Source: Thelephora terrestris
Lineage: Eukaryota; Basidiomycota; Agaricomycetes; Thelephorales; Thelephoraceae
Reading direction: 5' to 3'
DNA length: 64,000 nucleotides
Assembly (NCBI GenBank): GCA_015956445.1
Contig: WIUZ02000024.1
Location: 124,001-188,000 of the forward strand
This document shows positions 15,401 through 64,000 of this stretch, piece after piece; position 1 is the stretch's first letter; each line of letters opens with the position of its first letter. The position numbers were made by a program, and so were the translations under genes. The notes below the pieces were generated by a model. That model made no database searches, was not told the DNA's origin, and saw nothing but the letters and a program-made list of their open reading frames with translations.

Positions 15401-18400
15401 CGACGTAGTCGGCGAGTGACCCTCCGTCTCCCTCGTCGGACCCCTGGGCGGAATCCTGGATTGCGAGTCGACGCTGGTGGCGAAGCTGGATCTCCGACTC
15501 GACCTGTCGGTAGGGACGGTTGATCCGATAGCGGAACTCTCGTCCCCTATCTCGACCAGACTGGTCACCATCTGACTCAACTGGAAGCGGGTATGGGTAA
15601 GCCGATGGAGCCATGCGATGAGCAGGACGGCGTCGAGAGCGTCTGCAACGTTGCCCCTTAGTCACCGGACGTACCTCGGCGACCCTCGGAGCATCTTCAG
15701 CTCGGTCAACCTCCATGACCTCATCCTCGATCTTCACCAACTGATGGATCGGCTGCAAGACGCAGCGCCCACAGTTCTCCTTGTCGGAAGCGGCCAAGGT
15801 GGAAGCCGGACCTGGAGTCGGAACGGGAACCGCGTTCTCGATCGGAGGCGTCGCATAGGACGACGGGTTAGGCGATGGGAGTACCACCTCGTCGGCGTAC
15901 TCTAACTCGAACGGAACGTCTGCTGTCCCCTGACCAACCAATTTGGGACCTTCTTTACAGTTGCAGGTTTTGTCCTGCAAGGACTCGACCTGCGCTGTCA
16001 ACACGGCCACCACGTTCTCAAGCTCCTCAGTCTAGAAGAAGTGTCAGCTTCCCTCATTTCGTCTTCGAGATGAGGAAAGCTACCTTTTCATCCCTCCTGG
16101 CCAACGCCCCCTTAATGTTGTTATCCCTGACCTTCAGACCGGCGATCAACTCCTGATGGTTGGCGACCATAGCCTCCAACGCCTCGTTCGTTCCCTGCTG
16201 AAAGGCGGCCAGAGTCTCCTTCATCTGAAGACCCTCCGCCGACAGACGAAGGACGTCTGCCTTCGCCTCTTTCACCTCCCGTTCCAATCGTTCAACCTAG
16301 GCAGTCTGATTAGTCGAGAGTCATACTCGCATATTCAGACAGAAAACCTACCCGGCTTTCTCCCTCCCGAACGAGCGACCACAAGAGACTAGTGGCGGCG
16401 GTAGCATGGCGGACAGCCCGAGGAACGGTTGCTCCGTGCTCCAATAGGTCCTGATCGTAGATTCCCCTCTGCAGGGTGTACCAGAGCTCCTTCTTGATCG
16501 GATGCTCTAGCTCCCCGAACCTACCCCGCATTCGGAAGGCCACCTTCTCAGCAATGATTGTACGAACCCAGAGCTCGTCGTCCCAGGTCAACCCCATCAA
16601 ATGAGGCATCGTCTCCCTGAGACGTTCGGCGTCCACTTCCGTGACGACCTCCAAGATCTAGAAGCCGTTAGCTGGACATCAACGCCCAAAAGAACGTAAC
16701 CTCTACCTAGAGGAAGGCGTTAGTGCTAGCACAGAAAGCTCTAGGTCTCCCCCATACCTGGTCATCCGTGGTATAGGGAGTTCCAGCCGCACAAGCGTAG
16801 GATTTACGAGCGGCGGCACGACGATCGATGCGAGAAATGGTGGAGATACCATTGGCGACTTTGTAGGTGTAGTTGTTGGGGAAGGACATGTTTTGGTAAG
16901 ATGATGGGGAAGTTGCTGGTGTTGCTGATCAAGGATGGCTCCAAGAAGACGTCCTTCTTATAGCCTAGATCGGTGATCCTTCACGTGACCTACCTCGACG
17001 AACCTCATTGGTCCGGGTCACATCAACTTCCGCCCCTGTACCATCATCGTTGGCTTACTACATCAAGCTGACACCTCGGCCCGCGGGACGGCCTTGGAAG
17101 AATTTCGTTCCGGAACGCCTAGAACGCGCGCGCACTAAAAATAGGTCTCAAGACCCTGATGACCCCTTTATGACATCACGAACCCCTTTTTACGACCCCT
17201 CATGACTTTACGATTACGATCAACCCTGGACCCTGGAACACACACGTGGGCACGGGGTATCAACATTTGGACACTGTGCTTCTAATCGGATAGTAACCCT
17301 ATCTGATCTAGTTGTGCTTTGGAAGCAGAGTAGGCCCGAGTCGAGACCGGCGGCCGAAGAATATAATCCCTGGTGCCACTTAGGAAGAACGATATTCCCA
17401 GGTGCTATGCCTAATCAAGACTGGGTCTGATCAAGCGATTATGGTTGCAACTCCCAGGTTACTGCCTGTCCGTTGGTATCATACCACCTACCGACAACAA
17501 GGGATGTGTAGAGTCCTGTTATCTCTAGCCAATCGCAGAAGCTACGAGACGGGCTCACCTGACCCTTGGGTGTGGTCTAGATTCAGGTACGAACTTTCAT
17601 GACCCATGCCCCTTTTTCTTTTAGGACTAGTGTTATCTTTACCCCTATGTTTCATGCGGACATTCGTTATCTTTTATGCAATCCTTCACACGCTAGTAAG
17701 GCCCTTTGTCCTTTATTCTCCCACACGTCACCTTTGTTCGCTTCCCTTACTTAGTGTTCACACACTCCTTATCTCCCTTTGTTCTGGACTTGATAAAGGT
17801 ATATTAGGGTATTGACGTCATGGCCACTCCTTTAGTATAAGTAGCAACTGTGGCTGTATCGTAGTACCTTAGTTTTGTTACCTCAGGAAATCCTCTGCCC
17901 TTCTCAGCCCAGTTGCAGTTAAGGACAAGTCAGAGTTTCTTGTTTGATCCAAGACATCCCCCATCTGTTCTCCCTCCCGCTCTGCGCGTCAACTGCGCCT
18001 CGTAACTATAGACTCCCAGCAGTCATATTAGAACACCTCGAGCGTCCAGTCGATCAACTGGTGGAGTCATCAATCCTGCTGTAGGGATCAACCCTTGTTT
18101 GTTAAACTGAACGAAGTACAGTTTAGGCTGGGTTTCTCTTTAGGATTTCGACCTGACTTGTAGTGACCTCGGACAACCTACCGGAAGAATAGAGACGTGA
18201 TCGTTCTCTCACAAGCTAGTTGGACTAGTGAGTACTCTGCGGAGTCGGCTCAGTGCACTGGTAGTTGTTGGGGTAGAGTGGCCCTGACACTGCTCTTCCA
18301 GGTCTAGACGAGGGGATAATCCCGATCCAGCGCGTTGAACAGGGGCTATGTGGGCTAGAGTCCGATGGGGAGAAGATGGGGTGCCCTGTCAACGTCAATG

Positions 18401-21400
18401 AAGGTGGTCCTTAGTCGTACGATGCCTCCTAGCTCCGTAGGGACACGTAGGGAACTGTAGGGAAATGTAGTGAAACGTCGGGAACGTCGGGAACGTCGGG
18501 ACGTGTAGGGAGAAGTAGATATCAAGAGGGAATTAAAGATAACTAAAGATAACAGAAGGGAATCAATGAAACAGACAAAGGAACGACAAGGGAAAACTTC
18601 GGGACGACGACGAGAACTTCGGGAGGTCGGGATCTTCGGGATGACGACAGGACGCTAGAGACGACGACGAGAACGCAGGGACGCAGATATGACGACGAGA
18701 ACGATAGGGAAGACGCAGGAGACTATAGGGAGACGACGACGACGAGAGGAGAACGATAGGGAGAGGAAAACATGGGAATCAGTCCCCTGGATTGGTCTCT
18801 CTTGAGTCTATCGAATACAGAGGCTTATATACTAATCTAGGAGGCTCTGAGAACGTAGGAAGCAAGAGGGAATGAACCAAATGATGTCAAAAGACCTAAT
18901 GACGAGTCTATGACATAGGGAGGGCGAGGGATCGAAGGGAACAACCAAGGAAAGAGATGTGGTTGAGAAATGAACCAAAAGGGAATGATCGAGCATAGGG
19001 ATCGAGAGATTGAGGGGAATGGTGTAGGGAGATATCGCGAAGGTATAGGGAAGTCGGGAGAAGGTATAGGGAGGGGTCGCGAATGGTGTAGTGTTGGGAG
19101 GGATATAGGGAGGTCGGGGGGGGGGGGGGGGGGGGGTAGTGAGAGATAGGGAGAATACTAAAACATCGGGAAGGTCGCAAAGCATCGGGACGAGTAGGTT
19201 AGTATAGGGAAGGGAGTAGTGAGGTAAAGGGAGATATACGGGTATGTAGGGAAGTATAGGGATGCATAGGGAGGGGTAGGAGGGTATAGAGAGTATAGAA
19301 ACGTCGCGAAACGTCGCGAAACGTCGCGAAGCATCCCGAGGGAAAGGGACGTAGGGAATGTCGCCGACGAGTACTCCAGAGAATGGAGGCATGTCATCTC
19401 CTTGGGACTTCAGAATACAACCGTCCTCGGTTGTCCAAAGAATAGGGAGGACTCCTTGGGACTTCTGATACCAACTGGCTCGTCCCAATGTGATCCCGAA
19501 GAAAATGGGAGTAAGGGAATGGAGGGGAGCAATATAGGGTGAGAGGATGGGCAAAGGGAGACCTCGGGAGCTAAAAGCAAGCGGTAGGGAGATGTCGAAA
19601 ATTGGAGGAAGGGTGTAGGGAAACTTCGGGATGAGTGAAGATGCGGTGAATAAATGAAGGGGGCAGCTGTAGGGAAGCCTCGTGAATGGGAGGGAAACCA
19701 TAGGGAAGCTTCGGGAATCAAAGGGGTGTGGTCGGGAGAGGAAGGGAGACGTCCAGATGACTTGCCACTGAGAAGGGAGATCAGAGGAGTGGAACATCGC
19801 GATGGTCTGCTGGGGGAATAGGGAACTGGGGAGTAGGACTACGAACAGATGCAATAGATGAAGAGCTGCTCGAAAACAATAACGGAGGAAGAGAAGCAGA
19901 AAAGGGAGAAAAGTCGGGAAGTGAAAGAGATAGATCAGGAGGGGGATAACATGAATCGTGAAGAGGACTAGATAAATCGCGTGGGAAACAACGGGGAGTA
20001 GAACCAGAACAAGAGTAGGGAGAAGATTCGTGGTGTAGGGAAGTGGGGGAAGTAGATAGGGAAAGATAATCGTCACAGGGATGGGCTAGAGGCGGAGAAC
20101 CGCAAACAGAAGGAGGTAGCGAACTCGAATCCTGAAGGGAATGAAATAGGGAAGGAGAACTATGAAGGGAAGTGAATAGCGAAGGGGAATTGTAATGGAA
20201 ATGTGAAAATGGCTTGTGGAGTGAGGAAGATAGGGAAGGGGAGGCTACGAGTGTAAAGGGAGACTGAAGTAATGAGGGAGACTTGAATAGCGAAGGAGAA
20301 GGCATGTATGATAGTGGGGAAGAGATAGAGGAAGTGTAGGGAGAGGCGAAAGAGGTAGTAGGGAGGCTGTTGGACGAAGATTCGGAACAAGGAGAGGAGA
20401 AGGGAGGAGGGATGGAGACAACCTCAAGCAAAGTTGTAGGGATGGGAGGGTCGCGACTCGCGACTGTAGGGATGTCGGGAGAAGCGTCTTCCGGCCCGAA
20501 GAAGGTGGAAAGGTAGGAATCGAGAAGATCGTCTTCTTCCTCAATGTTCACGATGGGCTCCTCGCTATCAAAAGAATGATCGCGATGATAGGGAGGCTGT
20601 AGCGATGCATGGGGAGGCTGGGACAATGTGTAGGGAGGCTCAGGTGCGTAGACAGGCTGAGGGGATGTGTAAAACTGAGAGGAAACATAGGAGAGCTCGG
20701 GAGACACGTCGCGAAGCCGAGCGAAGGTGTGAGAAGGCTGGGGAGGTACTAGGGGGTTTTGGCAATGGATAGGACTGGTCTGGGAATCAGGCTCAGCTTC
20801 CCAGGCTCGTTCTTGTCTTCTCCGTTGGATATCAGCATAGACAGCGTTGAGTTGCATCGGCACCAGCTGAAACGGAGAGGGAGACTGAGTAGATGGGCAG
20901 GGAGACTGAGGGGGTGAGTAGGGATGCTGGGGAGATCGGTCGGGAGACTGAGGGAATAGATCGTGAGGCTGAGGAGATAGGTAGGGATGCTGAGGAGATG
21001 GGTAGGGAGGTTCGGGAGGTGGATAAGAACGCTGAGGGGATGGATCGCGAGGCTGAGGGGATGCTGGAGGGGTCTGGTGACGAGGAGGACTAATCTGAGG
21101 ACTAGTCTCAGCTTTCCTGCGCAGTTCTTCTCTTCTCTTCGTGAGAACCTCAATACGAGCTTGCCAAAACTCCATCTGCTCCTGCTCAGGGTCGACTCCG
21201 CTGTTGTGGTTAGAACCTGCAGGGGAGTCTGTCCCAAAAGCGTCGCGATGGTTCTGTTCTTTGTCGCGAAGACGTCGAGAGCCCCAATACTTGATGACAA
21301 GGTCCTGCAAGGTTGTTCCAGGAATGCTCCGAGGAATTGAGTGCCCAGTGGGAAAAGCGAGTTTCCCAGAGCTGTTTCGGATTATCCATCCCTGCTCAAG

Positions 21401-23440
21401 GTAGTGAGCAGCTGTTGGACAACTGCGAACAAGATGTTCGCGCGAATCGCAGAAGACACAGGCTAGGCTCCACTGGGGGGGGTTTTGAACTACTCCTCCT
21501 GGAGTAGGAGAAGGAAGACGCTGAGAGTAGGGATGAGCGACCGGATTTAGCGCATTGGTAGCAAGGAGTTCAGCAAACATAGCAAGAAATTCCTCGAATT
21601 GTCTATCACGGCGCTGATGATCGGGAGGATCGCGACCGTCGCGAGGCCTGCTAGCGAAGATAAAGAGTGCAGCTTCATGAACATCATCAAGATGATATAC
21701 TTTATCATAGGGCCTTGTTTTTGAGAGCCTCTGACGAATCTCTACCCGGATTGGGTGAGGGAAACCTTGAAGATAGAAAGTGCCACATCGGGAGTCACAG
21801 AGGTCGTCATTGTCAACAAGATAGTCGCTCATGGAGAGGAATCGCTCGTAATAGGTGTGGAGCTGTTCGCGATTCATATCCCGATAGTCCGCAGTGTGCT
21901 CGATAAGGCGGTTGAGATCATAGAGGGAATATCCAGTTGGCATGGTAGATGGCTTTAGAGGGAAGGGGGGAAAGTCGCGAGGGTTGGGGAGCTAATAGGG
22001 AGGCAGGGAGACTAACACGGCGTGGGTTCCAGGTGAACAGGGGCTATGTGGGCTAGAGTCCGATGGGGAGAAGATGGGGTGCCCTGTCAACGTCAATGAA
22101 GGTGGTCCTTAGTCGTACGATGCCTCCTAGCTCCGTAGGGACACGTAGGGAACTGTAGGGAAATGTAGTGAAACGTCGGGAACGTCGGGAACGTCGGGAC
22201 GTGTAGGGAGAAGTAGATATCAAGAGGGAATTAAAGATAACTAAAGATAACAGAAGGGAATCAATGAAACAGACAAAGGAACGACAAGGGAAAACTTCGG
22301 GACGACGACGAGAACTTCGGGAGGTCGGGATCTTCGGGATGACGACAGGACGCTAGAGACGACGACGAGAACGCAGGGACGCAGATATGACGACGAGAAC
22401 GATAGGGAAGACGCAGGAGACTATAGGGAGACGACGACGACGAGAGGAGAACGATAGGGAGAGGAAAACATGGGAATCAGTCCCCTGGATTGGTCTCTCT
22501 TGAGTCTATCGAATACAGAGGCTTATATACTAATCTAGGAGGCTCTGAGAACGTAGGAAGCAAGAGGGAATGAACCAAATGATGTCAAAAGACCTAATGA
22601 CGAGTCTATGACATAGGGAGGGCGAGGGATCGAAGGGAACAACCAAGGAAAGAGATGTGGTTGAGAAATGAACCAAAAGGGAATGATCGAGCATAGGGAT
22701 CGAGAGATTGAGGGGAATGGTGTAGGGAGATATCGCGAAGGTATAGGGAAGTCGGGAGAAGGTATAGGGAGGGGTCGCGAATGGTGTAGTGTTGGGAGGG
22801 ATATAGGGAGGTCGGGGGGGGGGGGGGGGGGGGTAGTGAGAGATAGGGAGAATACTAAAACATCGGGAAGGTCGCAAAGCATCGGGACGAGTAGGTTAGT
22901 ATAGGGAAGGGAGTAGTGAGGTAAAGGGAGATATACGGGTATGTAGGGAAGTATAGGGATGCATAGGGAGGGGTAGGAGGGTATAGAGAGTATAGAAACG
23001 TCGCGAAACGTCGCGAAACGTCGCGAAGCATCCCGAGGGAAAGGGACGTAGGGAATGTCGCCGACGAGTACTCCAGAGAATGGAGGCATGTCAGCGTCTC
23101 CACAAAAACTCAAATCCGTGTTCACGGGAAATCACGGACAGTGACCCGCACCCAGTTCCCGATCACTGGAGCATACGCCTTCACCGACTATCGCGCGCAG
23201 GGACAGACGATTCCTTACGTTGTGGTTGACATCGCATCTCCTCCCACGTCTGGACTTTCACTCTTCAATCTTTACGTTGCTCTTTCGCGCAGCTCTGGGC
23301 GGGACACTATCCGGCTGCTTAGAGACTTTGATGATAGCACATTTTTGCAGGGACACGTACCAGAACTACTTGAAGAGGATGAAAGGCTTGGTGGACTAGA
23401 CGTTATGACGAGGGAGTGGTGGGCCAAAATGGCAGGCTGA
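9451..23440 (+). CDS. Helitron Rep/PIF1-type helicase, opened by two insertions
   Basis: Rolling-circle transposase of a Helitron. The N-terminal part (9451-10721) has a Cys-rich segment (ICRECLSDLKRTPSLPPKFS) and LTFPEQLLIAHLYPRVYVF. Next is the Helitron-like N/Rep domain (10777-12553), with the two-His motif TLHLHLLVW and the Tyr motif ITFYVTSYAAKKQGK. The PIF1 helicase follows: GEGGTGKS (Walker A, about 13860), YLIIDEYSML (Walker B) and ILCGDLHQFPPV. An intron starts at 14981 and ends at 18301, swollen by element A. The short exon 18302-18335 (GLDEGIIPIQR) is cut by element B and resumes at 23098 with helicase motifs V-VI (YAFTDYRAQGQTIP, LYVALSRS). The open frame changes near 13200-13220, between AAFENFRHSATPRA and RALSGIQYFHKCES, consistent with a one-base frameshift. 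Present form is not functional unless both insertions are removed. Confidence 0.9.
15285..16889 (-). CDS. Coiled-coil protein of element A, unknown function
   Basis: About four exons joined by short introns. Exon 1 (from ATG 16889) is basic and contains RIDRRAAARKSYACAAGTPY. Exon 2 holds ETMPHLMGLTWDDELWVRT and IKKELWYTLQRGIYDQDLLE. Exon 3 is a strongly helical coiled coil (REVKEAKADVLRLSAEGLQM onward). The last exon has another heptad segment and then a long Pro/Glu/Arg-rich tail. A TATA box (CTATAAG, 16957-16963) lies 70 bp upstream of the ATG. No enzyme motif was seen. The same layout recurs in element C. It may be a gag-like or accessory protein, but I do not recognise the family. Confidence 0.55.
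17488..17569 (+). repeat. Conserved 80-bp block shared by elements A and C (copy in A)
   Basis: Starts with CTACCGACAACAAGGGATGT and ends with CTGACCCTTGG 71 bp later, with a CGCAGAAG core between. The second copy is at 60405-60487 with the same order and spacing. The DNA on either side differs. Confidence 0.8.
18336..19396 (-). repeat. 3' LTR of element B
   Basis: 1,061 bp, plus-strand ends TGAACAGGGG...GGCATGTCA. It contains many GGGA/TAGGGA-type short repeats, a triplicated AACGTCGCG near 19312-19330 and a run of 21 G at about 19116-19136. It is practically identical to the copy at 22034-23093. Confidence 0.92.
19781..21943 (-). CDS. Gag-like protein of LTR element B
   Basis: A 720-codon frame beginning MPTGYSLYDLNRLIEHTADY. 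The first third is the helical capsid-like region (LHTYYERFLSMSDYLVDNDD, FYLQGFPHPIRVEIRQRL). A CCHC zinc knuckle CVFCDSREHLVRSC follows. The rest is Pro/Ser/Tyr-rich low-complexity sequence. This pattern is that of gag proteins of Ty3-like elements in Agaricomycetes. No protease, reverse transcriptase or integrase signature is present, so the element would depend on proteins supplied by another element. Confidence 0.8.
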   Translation of the reverse strand: MPTGYSLYDLNRLIEHTADYRDMNREQLHTYYERFLSMSDYLVDNDDLCDSRCGTFYLQGFPHPIRVEIRQRLSKTRPYDKVYHLDDVHEAALFIFASRPRDGRDPPDHQRRDRQFEEFLAMFAELLATNALNPVAHPYSQRLPSPTPGGVVQNPPQWSLACVFCDSREHLVRSCPTAAHYLEQGWIIRNSSGKLAFPTGHSIPRSIPGTTLQDLVIKYWGSRRLRDKEQNHRDAFGTDSPAGSNHNSGVDPEQEQMEFWQARIEVLTKRREELRRKAETSPQISPPRHQTPPASPQPRDPSPQRSYPPPEPPYPSPQHPYLSPQPHDLFPQSPDRSPQHPYSPPQSPCPSTQSPSPFQLVPMQLNAVYADIQRRRQERAWEAEPDSQTSPIHCQNPLVPPQPSHTFARLRDVSPELSYVSSQFYTSPQPVYAPEPPYTLSQPPHASLQPPYHRDHSFDSEEPIVNIEEEDDLLDSYLSTFFGPEDASPDIPTVASRDPPIPTTLLEVVSIPPPFSSPCSESSSNSLPTTSFASPYTSSISSPLSYMPSPSLFKSPSLLQSPFTLVASPSLSSSLHKPFSHFHYNSPSLFTSLHSSPSLFHSLQDSSSLPPSVCGSPPLAHPCDDYLSLSTSPTSLHHESSPYSCSGSTPRCFPRDLSSPLHDSCYPPPDLSLSLPDFSPFSASLPPLLFSSSSSSIASVRSPTPQFPIPPADHRDVPLL
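22034..23093 (-). repeat. 5' LTR of element B
   Basis: 1,060 bp, same ends and internal repeats as the other LTR. The G-run has 20 instead of 21 bases. Confidence 0.92.
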
Positions 23441-23657
23441 TTTGGAACGAAAGGAGAGGAAAAACGAACAGAACCCATCGGCTAGGCCACAGGGTCTGGA
23501 GAAATAAAATCCGCAAAAACCCCTTCGGCTGGGCCGCCAGGGCTTTGGGATGAATGAGGAATGAATAGCAAAAGAGGGAAAGGGTTGTCCGCGGAGGGCG
23601 CAATGTTTCGGTGCAGAGAGGGGAAGAGACTGGAAGGGAGGAGCACGCAAAAACCCT

Positions 23658-23822
23658 GTCCCGTGGCGGGACGACATTTTTGCCGAGCCCGAGGTGCCTG
23701 TGCCGGAACCGGCATTTGTGTTTATTTTCGTTTATCTCAACATGTAAACCGTCAAAATGTTCCTATAGTCATACAACTCGGCGCTTCAATTTAGGGGGGG
23801 CAGGGAAACCTTGCAAGCAAGG
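23658..23822 (+). other. Candidate Helitron 3'-end hairpins
   Basis: Past the helicase stop are three perfect palindromes: GTCCCGTGGCGGGAC (23658-23672), TGCCGGAACCGGCA (23701-23714) and CCTTGCAAGCAAGG (23809-23822). The last lies exactly where MITE sequence begins. Helitrons end with a hairpin shortly before CTRR, but no convincing CTRR end was fixed here. Confidence 0.4.
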
Positions 23823-24096
23823 TAACAATATTCTGAATATAATTAAAATAATAAATATGTTATTTTCAAAACAGATTCTGCCCACATTCAAGGCAAAACA
23901 GATTCTGCCCACATTCAAGGAATATGCAAATGCAAATGAACTCTCAGCAGAGTTGGCTCTGGGCATCAGATTTGAATAAAATAATCCTAGGATATGGCTA
24001 GAATATGTTTAAAATAAGACATGTTTATTATTCTAATTATATTCTGAATATTATTTAGAATAATCCCCAGAAACCTATCCTATCCTGGACCCAGTG
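23823..24096 (-). mobile_element. CACTA-type MITE copy, one end missing
   Basis: Inverse-oriented relative of the complete MITE at 43742-44028. It shares TCAAAACAGATTCTGCCCAC, GCAAATGCAAATGAACTC and the terminus CCTGGACCCAGTG (ends 24096). The left terminus (about 45 bp) is absent and replaced by the hairpin-bearing DNA past the Helitron gene. A 27-bp segment (CAAAACAGATTC...TTCAAGG, 23870-23923) is tandemly duplicated only in this copy. Confidence 0.85.
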
Positions 24097-56261: not shown

Positions 56262-56270
56262 GATCCACCC

Positions 56271-56305
56271 AAGCGGCCGGCAGGGCGCAAACTTTTCATA
56301 TCAAC
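56271..56305 (+). repeat. Left terminal inverted repeat of the P-like transposon
   Basis: A 20-bp exact core plus CATATCAAC six bases further in; partner at 63934-63969. Confidence 0.85.
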
Positions 56306-56432
56306 CGGACTAAATTAGCGCACAGGGGACCACCCAAAAAGCGAAATCACCAGGACAAGGGGTACCCATTTCAAATGTATGATGTCATACTTACAAAGGT
56401 TCGACGACTGCAAGACAATATACTATTGGCAG

Positions 56433-59400
56433 CTACGCGTCCCTCATCTTCTTCGTAGGAGGGGTTGAAGTATGAGAGTCCTTTGGAGCGGCCTTCCTCT
56501 TCACTGTAAACATCAAGGGGTCTTTATCGCCCGGTTCACCCTTCTTTTTCTTTGCGAGAGCGGTTGAGACATGCGGGTGCGGGGTGTCCAAAGTACGCCG
56601 GCCATGTTTGTTTGGCTTCTTAACCAGCAACACCCCTGCTTCAACTTCTGACTTGAGCGAAGACAACTCCGTGTTACCCAGGGGGAGGGGGCGTTCGGCG
56701 GTGTGGAATTCTTCGATGGCCTCCGGTGTAAGACCCATCTTCTTCTCTTCCTGAGACGTAATCTGGATATCCAACCAAAGCGCCTTGTCGAGACCGTTGG
56801 GAATGAGATTTGAGTGAACGGCTTGAATGTGGCTGAAGGCGTTGTACTTCCAGATGGTGAGTTTGCGTGATCCAGAGTCACAGTGAGGGCAGTGGACCGG
56901 AACATTGGTACACGATGACTTCTTTCCAACTGCTGCCCCATAGCGAAAGGAATGTTGATATTGACAATTTGATTCGATGACCCGACCACCGCTTTTCGAG
57001 ATGGCCATTGTTGTCGTACATTCGTCCCCTCCACAAAACCCGCATGCATGATCGCTGATCTAAAGGCATTATTAATATAGGGATGACGCAAAATCTATGA
57101 ATCACTTACTTCTTGTTTCAGACCACTCTCCTTCATCCCGTACAACTGAAATATGATATGCCGACCCGTATGCATGCGCATCTGTGTTGATAAGACAGAG
57201 GCATCACAGAGGGGGCACTTGACACGGGAATTCTTGTCCACTGTCGGTGCACGTGTTCTTGCTCGAACTCCATCGACTACAAAACAAGCTGCGCCTATGG
57301 GTGCAAAAGTGGGGATAAATATTTGACATGTTGAAAGAGATGACTAACCACTTTGATCCTTATACGGTAAAACACCCAGGTTCCCGATCAATGGCAAAGC
57401 CTCTACCATGGCCTCCGTATCTCGTGCGCTGCCTGACTTGATTTTCTCCCAGATGTGCTCTGTGAGCGCACTAAGGTCTTCACTGGGGAAAACCCACGTT
57501 CGGTCCGGGGAGGAACTTGGGGTAGGTGTGGGAAAGTCATCCTGGAATAGGTCGCTGACTGCATGGATGCCTGGGTTTACTGGAAAACAAAGCCAGCCTG
57601 GACACACGATCGTGAAATGGTGGATGGTTGGTTTTGAAGTTCGTTTCTTTGGGTTTGAAATCTTGAGAAACTGGCCAGGGAGCCACGCCCAAACGGAACC
57701 AGCTTGCACGAGTTGAATGGCTTGAGCCTGGACCGAAACATCTGATCTTGGGTTTTGCAAGAGGTCCGTCGTGACAGAAGGGAGGGATGACTTTTCCTTT
57801 CGTATTGTGATCACCTGGATGATCACCAAGCAGATGGAAGAACCCGAGCAGACCAATGTAGCGGTGACATCGCCAACGCAGAAGCGGTCCAAGCCAGTGG
57901 AGTTGGTCTGGATATTGGTGGAGGAGCGTTTTCGTAGGTCGTCAAGTGTTAGGCCTTGAACTCGCAGAGTCCGCTCGGTAACTTTCTTGGACCGGTTGGC
58001 TTTCAGACACTGGGCCACAACCGACGACTTCCGGTGCATGATGCCATCAACTTCCAACCAGTCCTTCGGAATGTCGTCTACGATAGGATCTCCAATAATG
58101 TCCGGCAAAAGTTCCTCGAGCTCAGTAGTATCTGGCGCCTTGTCATCAGCCAGGATCCCCTTCGGTTCCACCACCTCTCCACCCACATCTTCCTCTGAGG
58201 TTACTTCCTTGTCAGCTGCTCGCTCAGATCCATCATCCAATCCTTCATCAGAGGGGTCTAGATCCCCAGAGAATCCGACATAATTTCCAGATGGGCGGAG
58301 GAGGTCATAGTCTGGCTGTGAAAAAGCTCCAAAAGGGTCGTCACATTCATTCGGGGGGAAGACAGAAGACAGAAAAGTCTCAGCATCAGCCTTTCCTTTC
58401 TGCCAACAAAGCTGTATCGAGACATTGTCCACGGTGACATCGCCAATCCACGACTTTGGGTTCACGTGATCGACCCCAATTGCATTTGTTAGGTTGAGGC
58501 GCCGTGAGCCAGCGTCTAAGTCAGGGTGTCGGGTGTAAATGGAGCTGATGACGGAAGCCATAGCAAGCTTGTAAGAGAGTTCAAGGATGTCGAAGTTCCT
58601 ATGGTGTGTCTGGGTCCGCGCGTTGCAGAAGCATGCCTCGAGGCGATCAGAACCAACTTGAATGATGTAGAACGGCTTTGATGAGTCCAGTAACTTTTGC
58701 TTGGCAACGCAGAAGAATATGTCTTTGACTGTGGCCTGGCTGTCAGAATATAGCGGAGAGGTCATGAATTGGGTCCCGTGTTTCTGGTACAGGAAGAACG
58801 CGAGATGGGCATACTTGACGAGGGAGGTAAGTTGGTCGGTGAGGGACATTTGGACGTCAATGAATGGTTGTGTAAATGAGTTGAGCACCTCAGCCAGAGT
58901 CGTAAGCGCATGGTGCTCTTCAAGCTGGGAAGGTGTGTAAGACAACGTCTCAAGTTCTCGAAGTTGACCGAGGTGTTGGATTAATGCGACCGCCTTTGGT
59001 ACATTTTGTTTGTCAGCGGGGTCAACCAAGGAGTCAACAATCTTTTCATTAACATCCTTGAGCCGAACAAGATGAGAGCGGAGGTGGTTCTTGTTGACAA
59101 CGGTGGTGCGGATGAGTAGGCCCTCGCGGCTTCGTAATAGTGTCGCAAACCCTAGATTCATGTCAGTGATTTTGATTTGGACAGTATGACCTCCACGTAC
59201 TCTTAAAGATATGCTTCGGGTCACATGTCATTGTTATATCATGTGGGCCAGTGAAGAGATTGAGACCGTGGAGATGGTGAAGCATAGGGTAAAGAAGACT
59301 GGAAGGGGCAAGCTCCTGTGACATACAAATCTGGAATCGGCTCGAACACATGGTAGACTCTCCATCAGTGGCAATGGACCATATGGGACCATGTCTCTTT

Positions 59401-62400
59401 TCACCATCTTCGCTCTCCTTCCATGCCCTGATAAGCTCCCTCAGCCACAAAGCCATCGCTTCCCCAGTCTCTGCTTTGCAACTCCCCGAGAGGGCAACCG
59501 GAATTGCTGAATATGATGAACTGCGGAATGGTGCAATTGCCACAACTGTTGCTTCGCTGGCGTAATGGGCCCGTGGCTTGTCGCTGTGAAGCGTGTCCTC
59601 TATGTCAGCAAGGGCTTCTTGTGATCGAACACGAGGGTCGAGCGCAGATCCATGTTCCCTACAAATACCGACAACGCTGTCGGTGGATCGCAAGTACCGG
59701 CACTTTTCTTCAAGGGCAACGCCATCAACAAGAAGCGAGTGACCGCAGGTGGTCGTGGTGGGCTGTTGGTGTTCGCAGAAGAAGTGGCTGATGTTCTCGT
59801 TGACTTCTAGGAGAGTGGGGGTGGATATGCTTGGAGCCAAGACTGGAACCTTTTGTCGTTGCATGAGAGATCGGTAGGACGGCAGGTTGAATGATCTGTT
59901 CAGCGCGAATAACACCCTTGGTCCTCCGATCGATTGGGCGAGGTAAGCAAGATCAATGTCGAACTGGCTGGCGGTAGGGTGTGGGGTGTAGAGACCGTGA
60001 GCGGCAGTTGCCAGTTGCATGACCATGGCAGATGGAGAGGACCCATTCTTCATTGCAACGGAAAGTACATTAGCAACATTTTTGTAGTCGCAAACGGAGA
60101 TATGCCGTGCGAGCCGTTCCCAGTTGTGATGATTTCGCCGTTTACCCCCTTTCATTTCCAATATTTAACGCCTCATCACCACTAAGTCAGTTGGTGCCTT
60201 GCCCTAAACATGGCGGTAAACTGTTTATTATGCAGTATGCCCTATGCTTAACGACTCAAAAGTCCAATACGTGGAACGTGCTACTAGTCAAAATACCCCA
60301 GAAGACCCGAGGTATAATACGTGAACATGTACCGGCGGACCTTCATACGAAGATCCCCCCTACCTGGCCCTCCGTTGCCCCTGGACGACTAGTAGATATT
60401 CAGGCTACCGACAACAAGGGATGTATTAATAAGTGTCGCACGCTGACCTCTCGCAGAAGTCAACCGGCTTATTAATCTGACCCTTGGATTGGACTTATGA
60501 AAACCATCATGCTTTACGACTCATGGATCACACGCAATAGACAAAATAGAAAGAAGATTCATTGGAAACCAACAGTACAAAAGAGTTATCTAATCAATAT
60601 CTCTTCGGATCCTTTGTACTACTTCCAATGCCGATCTCACCAACTCCTCATTCAACCAGTTCTGCTCCCGGATCTCGTTCGGGTCCATGTCCGACAAATC
60701 ATCGTAATCTGGAAGCTCCGTATCAGAGTTTGGTTCACTATCGGGAACGAACTCGGCGTACGGATCATACTCCAGAGCAGGCCATTGACGGCGACTACCC
60801 CAAGGAGTAGAAACGAACTCAGGACGAGGAGTGTCCCTACGGACAACTCCTACGTTCTGATAGAATTCGTCGCTCCCGATTTCAATGACCTCATCATCGA
60901 TCGGAACCAACCTGTTCTCGTGACGGACTAATAAACGAGCGGGCGGCGACTCAGCCCGATTGGGAATTATCGGCGACCCGGCCCGATACGGAACCTCTAA
61001 CTCCTCTTCTTCGACTCGGACCTCCGGCTCATTGCACCTCCTCTGGAGATCCCGGACTTCTCCGGTCAACTCGGAGACACGACGAGTAAGACGAACCTAA
61101 AACGAATAGGGTTAGAAGACATTAAAAACCTTCAACCCCTACTCGTTACCTTATCGTCCTCCAATTCTCCGGTCTTAGTAACCAGAGCCCGGACCAAGTC
61201 CTTGAGAGTGGTCACCTCTCCCTAAAAGGAAATGTTGGGTTAGAAAAGTCAATTATCTCCCGACCCCACATTTACCTTCAGCAAATCAATGTCGGCCCCC
61301 TGTCGAACAACGCTATCTTCCTGTCCATGAATAACGCCTTGCATATCCTCCTTCCAGTTCTCCAAAACTTCGATCTCCTCACGACAACCATCAATACGTT
61401 CGTTGACGTGAGCCACTTCGTCCATCAACATGGACCCAACGTTCCCCGTATGGAGAACGCTGGCCTCTAACACGGAGTTAAAGGTCTCGTTGGCCTCAGT
61501 CACGAACTCAACACCCCTATTGAGGAGTTCGTTCGCATAAGGGTTAGTCTCGATACGCGCCAACTTGCGCCGAGACACCCTTCGAGCGGCCTGGAGAAAG
61601 TCCCTGAAACCTAAAAGGAGTTAGCTTGGTTTCCAAAACCGGAACGCACAAGCAGAGCCCCCACCTAAGTCAGAGAACCCTTCCTTAGGGTCGGCGGTGG
61701 CAGTGCGGTCCATAACAGCTCCCAAAGTGGGATAAGGGCGGGATGGATCACGGCGGGCATGGGAGAAGCGGTCGATGTTGAAGTTGTTCTCCTGAACAGG
61801 AGAGTAAGAGGAAGAGCGACGGGTGGGAACACGAGTTTGAGCACGAGGCATGTTGGCTGTGTGTAACAAGGGTGGGTTTGTTGAGAGACCCAGTCATCCA
61901 ACCCCCTTTGGTTATATACCAAATGCCACACCCCTTCCACGACTCAGGAGTTGAGTCATCATTTCTATTGTTTACTGCGCATGACCCACATGACATCATA
62001 TGCCCCTATTTCTTAGTCATATGCTCCCCTTTTGCCATTGGCTGTTAGTCAGTCATACCCACATTCCTTCCGAACATTCCCAGGCTACGTCATGCTTTGT
62101 AACTGCTTTGTAATGCTCTCAAATTGCTATTGGCCGCCACACTTTCGTTTATCAGCTGATAATTTGTAGCATTAGTCACCACGTAACGCACAGACCATGC
62201 AGTGCTGCGCACGGACCATGTTTGTCTGTGTTTGTATCTTTAGGGTAGTTACATGTCACTGTCACGTCACAAATCTAAGTAGTATATATACTCAGAGTAG
62301 TTTAGCCTGTACTCCTTAGATTTGTTATCATCAGACTCTCCGTGACCTCTACTGCTGTGTGCTTAGAGCAAGAGTGCCTGAAGACCCTTGTCTCCTTCCT

Positions 62401-63654
62401 TCTCCTTCTCTCCAATCTAGTCAGTGAAGAGACTTCCGATATCCCTGGGTTTGCAACAGGGTTATAACTGTGTGTTTGACCCCTGCGTGTGATAGGTTTG
62501 GATAGCAAGAGTGCTATTGAACTGTAGAGGTCGCGTCGGCCTGACACCAGTCACTTGATTTTCGTGAGAGGGTCTGAGCCTTGTGGCCTAACGATTCGAC
62601 CTTTGGTAGGTTGTCAGATCCAGGGTAAGCGTTGAACTATGAGTGACCAAACCTTTGATCACTCCTTCATCAGGAGATCACTTTTCTCCCGTGTTCTTTT
62701 GACGAGTTGTTCCCAGTTGAGTTTGTCGTACACCCGGTGTTTGTAGTCATTCTTTGCACGATTGTCAGCTTGCTGGTATTTGATAGATGAGGTGATTTCG
62801 GCGCAGTCTTGACAGCAAGGTTGTGAAGGGTCGCAAACGCCGCCACAGCTATTAGACCACAATCGGAGCGACCCGGGGCGTTCACCAACTGCTACCGTCC
62901 ATGGTAGGGTGCTTGAACCTTCCGAGCTGTGAAGGTTGAATGGGTACGTGGTGGCCGGGTCGCCAGGCTCCCATAAGACAAGGGAACCTGGACAACTTTT
63001 CTGTGCGGGTGGGATTTGGGTAAGCGGGGAGAGCGCGGGCCAGTTCGGGTGCCAGTTGGACTCGAGCATGAGGGAAGGGAGAGCAATGTGACTGGAAATG
63101 GACGGGGTTGAACAAACTTGAGGTGAGCCCGGGGCAGACCACGCGAGAGTTCCAAACGATGGGGAAGGAGGATCAAGAGGAAAGAGGTGTGAATCAATGG
63201 TTGAAGGTAGGACATTGGCCAACAAACGAGTTGCGGAAGGTTTATCGATGAGTGCCGGGGCCGACGAGACAGGTGAGATAAAGGGGGATGGAGGAAGCAT
63301 TGGGATTGCTGTGTAGCCCATTGACTTTGATGGTGGGTGGGCCCTAGCAGCCTCTAGTTCCATCTTCTTTCTCTCCTTCGCACAAGAATTTGAACCAGTG
63401 TGTAGTTGGAACGACCACTCGGCTCCCTTCGGTCCAAGGCCAATCCACTTGCCGCATGTCGGGCACTTTCGAGACATAGAGCCGTTTTCTTGTTGGCGAT
63501 AGGCGCCGCTCTGAATTGAAGATTCGAGCGGGGGAACGGGAGGGTTGGATATGCTGTTTTGTGGTCGCTCGGTGTGATACATGAGAGATATTTTAGAGAG
63601 TCGAGCAAGGAGTTGAGGATACGTGGCTCGTTGCGCCCATCCACGGTGTGACAT
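56433..63654 (-). CDS. P/THAP9-like transposase, split by element C
   Basis: Exon 1 (63654 or a nearby ATG to 62666) has a Zn finger CPTCGKWIGLGP (C-x2-C-x17-H-x5-C) and a second Cys-rich part (SCPGSLVLWEPGDPATTYPF; CCQDCAEI). After element C the frame resumes at 60155 with RNHHNWERLARHISVCDYKN. Then follow LLVDGVALEEKCRY, IWSIATDGESTMCSSRFQ and DITMTCDPKHIFK-GFATLLR, then DPADKQNVPKAVALIQHL, DSQATVKDIFF and GSDRLEACFCNARTQTHHRN. This order parallels P-element/THAP9 transposases (D-motif, TCDG, D-x-x-H-L-x-K, QKMKVKLAAQ, D-x-LENFF-x-R). An acidic linker follows. The C-terminal exon has Zn-finger motifs (KCPLCDASVLSTQMRMHTGR; CPHCDSGSRKLTIWKYNAFS) and a Lys-rich tail. The family is frequent in mushroom genomes; the P/THAP9 link is my inference. 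Confidence 0.65.
60405..60487 (+). repeat. Conserved 80-bp block shared by elements A and C (copy in C)
   Basis: CTACCGACAACAAGGGATGT, then CTCGCAGAAG, then CTGACCCTTGG, same order and spacing as at 17488-17569. Confidence 0.8.
60590..61851 (-). CDS. Coiled-coil protein of element C, unknown function
   Basis: ATG 61851 (MPRAQTRVPTRRSSSYSPVQ), basic first exon. Middle exons carry RKLARIETNPYANELLNRGV, NERIDGCREEIEVLENWKED and a heptad-rich helix (TGEVRDLQRRCNEPEVRVEE). The last exon is acidic (DDEVIEIGSDEFYQNVGVVR) and ends with LNEELVRSALEVVQRIRRDI at 60590. A TATA box (GGTATATAAC, 61911-61920) lies 60 bp upstream. No enzyme motif. The plan (basic start, coiled-coil middle, charged disordered end, short introns) is the same as in element A, although residue identity is low. 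Confidence 0.55.
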
Positions 63655-63933
63655 GTTGAAATCTTGTGACCCGATAGGGGGTGGGTCATCTCGTGACTTT
63701 GGGTGGGCGAGTCGCAAACCGATTCCGAGGGAAACCCCGATTTTTCCCTTCCCCTTCAACTGCCCTGGAATTACGAGGCAACGGCCACTCGAGCAAGTGC
63801 CAAATGGTGGCACATGCAAAGTATTTGGTGCTAATCCTACGTAGTTCTATCTTCTACATCCTAAGTTTTCACCGATTGCAAAGTAGACCTGATTTCGTCC
63901 TCGGGCACGTGTGAGACCACCACCACCACCCGT

Positions 63934-63969
63934 GTTGATATGCGGGCGCTTGCGCCCTGCCGGCCGCTT
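63934..63969 (-). repeat. Right terminal inverted repeat of the P-like transposon
   Basis: Inverse complement of the left repeat, with an eight-base spacer between core and CATATCAAC instead of six. Confidence 0.85.
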
Positions 63970-64000
63970 GGATCCACCCCGCCTGGATAGATTACTCGCG

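What the first reader, a model, noticed from the sequence alone, without database searches (positions are those of the whole stretch)
56262..63985. A fungal P/THAP9-like transposon with terminal inverted repeats
The sequence shows a single-gene unit bounded by a 20-bp exact inverted repeat plus CATATCAAC on each side. In the protein, acidic residues and partner motifs fall in the order known from P-element and THAP9 transposases: a VDG motif, TDGES, CDPKHIFK, DPADKQNVPKAV and DRLEACFCNAR. I know this protein family as a frequent unnamed family in mushroom genomes. Recognising it as a mobile P-superfamily relative would explain its abundance.
Basis: partly seen in the sequence, partly recalled or inferred. 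Interest (0 to 1): 0.85.

Follow-up and report, generated by a model that had tools for sequence, protein, structure and literature searches.

The report
Fungal cut-and-paste DNA transposon family
This is a real jumping-gene (DNA transposon) family in a fungal genome, with matching inverted ends and 8-base target duplications; the enzyme that moves it looks distantly like the fruit-fly P element's, but that kinship is not proven, and the copy in this window has been broken by a second mobile element.

Summary
The unit is 56270-63970 (7701 bp), with 21-bp perfect terminal inverted repeats and an exact 8-bp target duplication, GATCCACC. Nine related loci were found in the same genome: six have both ends, each with inverted repeats and an exact 8-bp duplication; for three no ends were found. 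Two insertions have uninterrupted empty-site copies. The window copy is not a single-gene unit: a 2422-bp LTR-like unit with a 5-bp duplication interrupts the transposase coding sequence.

Kinship with P/THAP9 is plausible, not shown. Acidic residues and D..H..K, KQxV..A and D..E motifs occur in P order, and D2-to-E spacing is 226-227 against 228 in the fly enzyme. But Pfam's P models, which recognise the fly enzyme, match none of 17 family pieces; alignments are not significant; AlphaFold models were poor. No THAP domain was detected. Rust fungi were reported to have P elements in 2011. I call it a new variant of a known kind.

The parts
56262..56269 (.). left target-site duplication GATCCACC
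56270..56290 (+). left terminal inverted repeat, 21 bp
56297..56305 (+). subterminal CATATCAAC, left copy
56270..63970 (-). whole element, 7701 bp (5274 bp without the nested unit and its duplication)
56433..57059 (-). open frame with the C-terminal transposase part: cysteine/histidine clusters (CGFCGG..C, CPHC..H)
   Evidence: the same pattern in the C23 and C11 copies
57095..57343 (-). open frame with a C2H2-like motif (CPLCDASVLSTQMRMHTGRH)
57347..59151 (-). transposase exon: insertion region (DPADKQNVPKAV), candidate catalytic E in SDRLEACF, then C-terminal part
59152..59200 (-). 49-bp GT..AG intron, splices HIFKR to FATLL
   Evidence: other copies compared
59201..60119 (-). transposase exon: candidate catalytic D1 (LLVDG) and D2 (ATDGE), conserved CDPKHIFK
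60120..60124 (.). 5-bp duplication CCAGT of the nested unit, left
60125..62546 (+). nested LTR-like unit TG..CA, 2422 bp, carrying a minus-strand gene; interrupts the transposase coding sequence
62547..62551 (.). 5-bp duplication CCAGT of the nested unit, right
62659..63846 (-). open frame holding the N-terminal transposase exon, with zinc-finger-like motif CxxC..H..C (CPTCGKWIGLG...)
63934..63942 (-). subterminal CATATCAAC, right copy
63950..63970 (-). right terminal inverted repeat, 21 bp
63971..63978 (.). right target-site duplication GATCCACC

Best explanation
This is one copy of a cut-and-paste DNA transposon family. The element encodes an intron-containing transposase of very roughly 1300-1500 residues (start and last exons not fixed): an N-terminal zinc-finger-like motif, a D..D..E catalytic region with a mostly helical stretch of about 170 residues before the E, and C-terminal cysteine/histidine clusters. 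By inference the zinc-finger regions bind the ends, the DDE domain cuts at the inverted repeats, and the free ends attack target DNA 8 bp apart. Shown here: the ends, the 8-bp duplications, empty sites for two insertions, a copy that keeps both ends but has no match to the catalytic exons, and a head-to-head double insertion sharing the 8-bp duplication. Inferred: the catalytic residues, the chemistry, and that the closest known enzymes are P/THAP9 transposases, of which this would be a divergent fungal lineage with a different DNA-binding front end. The window copy is interrupted by an LTR-like insertion in its coding sequence, so it probably cannot move without transposase from another copy.
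For: Transposon: 21-bp perfect TIRs and TSD GATCCACC in the window; C3 TSD TGTAAGCC; C45 TSD ATGGGAGT; C12 pair with three copies of CTTTTACC; C11 TSD AGAACAAC; C23 TSD ACACCGAC. Empty sites: joined C3 flanks match C3:958888-959127 at 100% over 240 bp without a gap; joined C45 flanks match 8 listed places at 96-98% across the join, e.g. C56:2054827-2055020 without a gap. C45 keeps both ends and is not among the catalytic-exon matches. P-like transposase: in 5 spliced copies D2 to the conserved D is 48, that D to V 57-58, V to E 121, D2 to E 226-227, against 36, 62, 130 and 228 in the fly enzyme (with residue numbers from passages of PMC8230255 and PMC7776569). By eye, KQNVPKA lines up with KQKVKLA at fly K400-V401, and DRLE with fly D528-x-x-E531 (fly sequence). 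A pattern of these motifs occurs in the fly enzyme, in 4 of 7 family sequences and in 0 of 20,000 shuffles of the window protein; I wrote it after seeing both proteins. Both weak models have strand, helix, strand, strand, helix, strand and then a mostly helical part up to the E.
Against: Pfam's four P-type models hit the fly enzyme but none of 17 family pieces from eight loci at E up to 10. phmmer and hmmsearch of the PDB found no transposase. hhalign against the fly enzyme gave P-value 0.16 in the wrong place. hmmsearch --max did not list the fly enzyme although it listed 518 of its 1000 shuffles. Unforced alignment gave Z between -0.01 and 1.54 over four gap settings, with none of the three catalytic residues in register in any; one setting put D339 and V401 in register. 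D1-D2 spacing is 118-120 against 73 in the fly enzyme. AlphaFold mean pLDDT was 40.5 and 49.9, and Foldseek found nothing at E up to 0.001. The position that might correspond to the GTP contact D444 is not constant (FIDV, FVNV, FTDI). C59, C1 and C16 showed no inverted repeats with 8-bp duplications in the DNA searched.
Confidence: 0.62

Rival explanations
1. A DDE transposon family with 8-bp duplications that belongs to no named superfamily: the P-like motif order reflects the general layout of DDE enzymes with an insertion domain, not close kinship with P.
For: No Pfam transposase model of any kind matched the 17 pieces. No significant alignment to the fly enzyme. Different zinc-finger-like front end and extra C-terminal cysteine/histidine clusters.
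Against: Several further motifs (DPKHIFK, KQNVPKA, DRLE..F...R) also fall in P order, and the D2-to-E spacing is within 2 of the fly value.
Confidence: 0.3
2. A diverged member of another superfamily that makes 8-bp duplications: KDZ (Zisupton) or hAT.
For: Zisupton makes 8-bp duplications and hAT elements usually do (PMC12730594, passages read). KDZ is abundant in this genome, 129 matches.
Against: None of the listed KDZ matches lies in the family loci. No KDZ or hAT Pfam model matched any of 17 pieces. By recall, hAT enzymes lack a D three residues before the catalytic E and carry a hATC domain.
Confidence: 0.06
3. A chance inverted repeat around an unrelated host gene.
Against: Six loci with exact 8-bp duplications and empty sites for two of them.
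Confidence: 0.01

Closest known systems
Drosophila P element transposase (PDB 6p5a) and THAP9
   Same: Terminal inverted repeats, 8-bp duplications, internally deleted copies; motif order D, D, D..H..K, KQxV..A, D..E; D2-to-E spacing 226-227 against 228 and 239 (published residue numbers).
   Different: No THAP domain detected; zinc-finger-like N terminus and C-terminal cysteine/histidine clusters instead; D1-D2 spacing 118-120 against 73 and 70; no significant profile or alignment match; GTP-contact residues only partly recognisable.
Rust-fungus P elements (Repbase P-1_PSt, P-1_MLP, P-2_MLP)
   Same: Basidiomycete host, 8-bp duplications (PMC3164196, one passage read). That the window's host is a basidiomycete is inferred, not given.
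Zisupton / KDZ transposons
   Same: 8-bp duplications, present in basidiomycetes (PMC12730594 abstract and passages).
   Different: No match between the KDZ model and this family.

Membership tests
cut-and-paste (TIR) DNA transposon | terminal inverted repeats at the borders of copies | tested here: met
   6 of 9 loci: window, C3, C45, C12 pair, C11, C23; not found at C59, C1, C16
cut-and-paste (TIR) DNA transposon | fixed-length target duplication | tested here: met
   exact 8 bp at 6 of 6 loci with both ends
cut-and-paste (TIR) DNA transposon | empty sites | tested here: met
   2 of 6 loci (C3, C45); none for C12, C11, C23 among the 40 of 348 candidates scored; none for the window
P superfamily | 8-bp duplication | tested here: met
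   as above; shared with hAT and Zisupton, so not distinctive
P superfamily | match to P-element profiles (Pfam TNP-like RNaseH_N, GBD, RNaseH_C, Tnp_P_element) | tested here: not met
   0 of 17 pieces at E up to 10; the fly control is listed for all four at E up to 0.01, Tnp_P_element below its curated cut-off
P superfamily | RNase-H fold with insertion between strand 5 and helix 4 | tested here: inconclusive
   secondary-structure order roughly fits, with an extra helix after the first strand; models too weak, Foldseek not significant
P superfamily | D, D, E order and spacing | tested here: inconclusive
   order and D2-E spacing fit, D1-D2 spacing does not; no support from unforced alignment
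P superfamily | GTP-binding residues of the insertion domain | tested here: inconclusive
   counterparts of D528 and V401 recognisable by eye; N in place of K400; D444 position variable
P superfamily | 17-nt staggered cleavage inside the inverted repeat | not testable with these tools
   needs biochemistry
P element/THAP9 proper | N-terminal THAP domain | tested here: not met
   no THAP match in the window N-terminal frame or in 8 relative frames, two of which (C3, C1) hold N-terminal parts
KDZ | KDZ transposase domain | tested here: not met
   129 matches elsewhere, none of those listed at family loci

The most novel reading that the evidence does not exclude
The family founds a separate DDE transposon superfamily with 8-bp duplications, CAAGCGG ends and a multi-zinc-finger transposase, an early or independent offshoot on the P side of the DDE tree that may have lost or never had GTP dependence.
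Probability: 0.3. Interest if true: 0.6.

Novelty: new variant of a known kind. Interest (0 to 1): 0.42.

Why it matters
A transposase family that no Pfam profile recognised here is a mobile element that annotation pipelines may file as host genes; defining its ends and duplication lets its copies be found by structure. If it is P-related, it extends P-type elements in fungi beyond the rusts with a different DNA-binding front end, and makes it testable whether GTP dependence is ancestral to the superfamily.

Tried and rejected
Chance inverted repeat: rejected by duplications and empty sites. Single-gene unit: rejected, nested unit found. KDZ: no listed match at family loci. Pfam for any transposase: nothing at E up to 10 in 17 pieces. 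This genome with PF21787: no match, but the tool's control genomes were silent as well, so it says nothing. Relatives in viral and prokaryotic contigs to deepen the alignment: none confirmed. Two AlphaFold jobs: low confidence. Inverted pairs of the nested unit (C4, C12) as one long-TIR element: rejected, since outside the unit itself the two interiors share only one 150-bp stretch. Ends of C59, C1 and C16: not found by a TIR-plus-8-bp search in 16, 10 and 10 kb. Partial matches of the TIR core outside the family loci were not examined.
Full report
The observation. The region holds a unit of 7701 bp, 56270-63970, with 21-bp perfect terminal inverted repeats and an exact 8-bp direct duplication (GATCCACC) outside them. 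The motifs it named are there in the stated order on the minus strand.

The unit is not a single gene. Compared with the copy on contig C3 (C3:962888-968048, 5161 bp, 79% identical over a 3.6-kb block and 70% over 1.4 kb), the window copy has an extra 2422 bp at 60125-62546, flanked by CCAGT on both sides, beginning TG and ending CA. A search of the genome with it gave 41 matches, the window included, from 40 scored of 306 candidates; 36 of the 41 are full length, and the other copies are 90-95% identical. It is therefore a separate mobile unit, LTR-like, inserted in the transposase coding sequence after a tryptophan codon (read). The N-terminal exon lies beyond it in 62659-63846.

The family. 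Protein searches of the window's own genome gave relatives at C3, C12 (two), C59, C1, C16, C23 and C11, and a search with the left end gave C45. Counting the C12 pair as one locus and the window as one, that is nine loci. Six have both ends, and all six have exact 8-bp duplications: window GATCCACC, C3 TGTAAGCC, C45 ATGGGAGT, C12 CTTTTACC, C11 AGAACAAC, C23 ACACCGAC. The other three, C59, C1 and C16, form a diverged subfamily (matching blocks 75-79% identical in DNA), and no ends were found for them.

Mobility. Flanks joined at one copy of the duplication were used as queries. The C3 site has an uninterrupted copy at C3:958888-959127, 100% identical over 240 bp without a gap, and more at 96% and below; the C45 site has uninterrupted copies at 8 listed places, 96-98% identical over 193-197 bp across the join. 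No empty site was seen for C12, C11 or C23, but only 40 of 348 candidates were scored, and none for the window, whose flanks gave only their own two matches. C45 is a 3142-bp copy that keeps both ends and matches the window element only near them. C12 is a head-to-head pair of 7164-bp copies, identical to each other, with CTTTTACC before, between and after them: the simplest reading is that the second copy inserted exactly into the duplication made by the first.

The transposase. The 950-residue open frame at C59 (17 residues of intron-like sequence left out in the script) and spliced forms of four other copies give D1-D2 118-120, D2 to the conserved D of D[PY]KH 48, that D to the V of KQNV 57-58, V to E 121, and D2 to E 226-227 residues. 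Published residues in the fly enzyme are D230, D303, D339 and E531, and in THAP9 D304, D374, D414 and E613 (PMC8230255, passages); GTP contacts include K400, V401, D444 and D528 (PMC7776569, passages). Their D2-to-E spacing is thus 228 and 239. One intron of 49 bp with GT..AG ends lies right after the CDPKHIFK motif in the window copy.

Fold. The first AlphaFold model (C59 frame, 950 residues) had mean pLDDT 40.5. Its Foldseek hits were not significant (best E 0.015, IstA transposase); of the first 20, one is IstA, four are Prp8 entries and one a tri-snRNP entry, eight are endonuclease V and three HIV reverse transcriptase, folds that I recall as RNase-H-like or containing such a domain. The second model (460 residues) had mean pLDDT 49.9 and unrelated hits, best E 0.85. 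The P transposase structure is in neither list of 50. Both models have strand, helix, strand, strand, helix, strand, then a mostly helical part up to the E; that is roughly the order expected of an RNase-H core with an insertion domain, with one extra helix, and the strands themselves are of low confidence. I treat the fold as untested.

Front and back ends. No THAP domain was detected by Pfam in the window N-terminal frame or in eight frames from C59, C1, C12 and C3. The N-terminal frames of the window, C3, C1 and C11 copies have a CxxC..H..C motif; in the C23 frame the last cysteine is missing. The C termini of the window, C23 and C11 copies have further cysteine/histidine clusters. [quoted passage not shown]

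Prior knowledge. P-superfamily elements with 8-bp duplications were reported from rust fungi in 2011 (PMC3164196, one passage). In the ten library searches I ran, whose listings were partly capped, I noticed no report of this family in the titles, abstract openings and passages I saw; most subscription papers are not held, and a survey of fungal cut-and-paste transposons that I asked for was not held.

Verdict. The transposon family is real (about 0.98). P affinity is plausible at about 0.6. New variant of a known kind.

Noticed in passing
window 60125-62546 and 40 other matches in the genome: A 2.42-kb LTR-like unit (TG..CA) with 5-bp duplications, CCAGT in the window and by eye AACCT (with an altered right end), GTGCG and CGGTG at three C23 copies, carries a minus-strand gene in several exons. 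Between the window copy and the three C23 copies, mismatches in three exon blocks are 12.5/6.2/27.3, 11.3/8.7/28.2 and 6.9/1.9/27.2% by codon position, against 6.0% in non-coding parts: the protein looks under purifying selection, and the coding part is oddly more diverged at third positions than the flanks. No retrotransposon interior was identified.
   Followed up: partly
C12:629634-643969: Two identical 7164-bp copies head to head with three copies of CTTTTACC, suggesting very recent insertion of one copy into the duplication of the other.
   Followed up: partly
whole genome: 129 matches to the KDZ transposase model PF18758, best E 4.6e-69.
   Followed up: no
C11:79871-93294 and L029:1-1894: The C11 copy sits between arms of other inverted repeats; the C3 copy lies about 1 kb from a 232-bp inverted repeat and inserted into a sequence repeated many times in the genome.
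   Followed up: no
window 18001-24000: Strong strand asymmetry: GC skew 0.29 to 0.39 and AT skew 0.15 to 0.27 over three successive 2-kb blocks, the strongest GC skew of the window's 32 blocks.
   Followed up: no
C23:822169-851657: The C23 copy is swollen to 29.5 kb by nested insertions, among them copies of the LTR-like unit, and by a repetitive stretch in L039.
   Followed up: no
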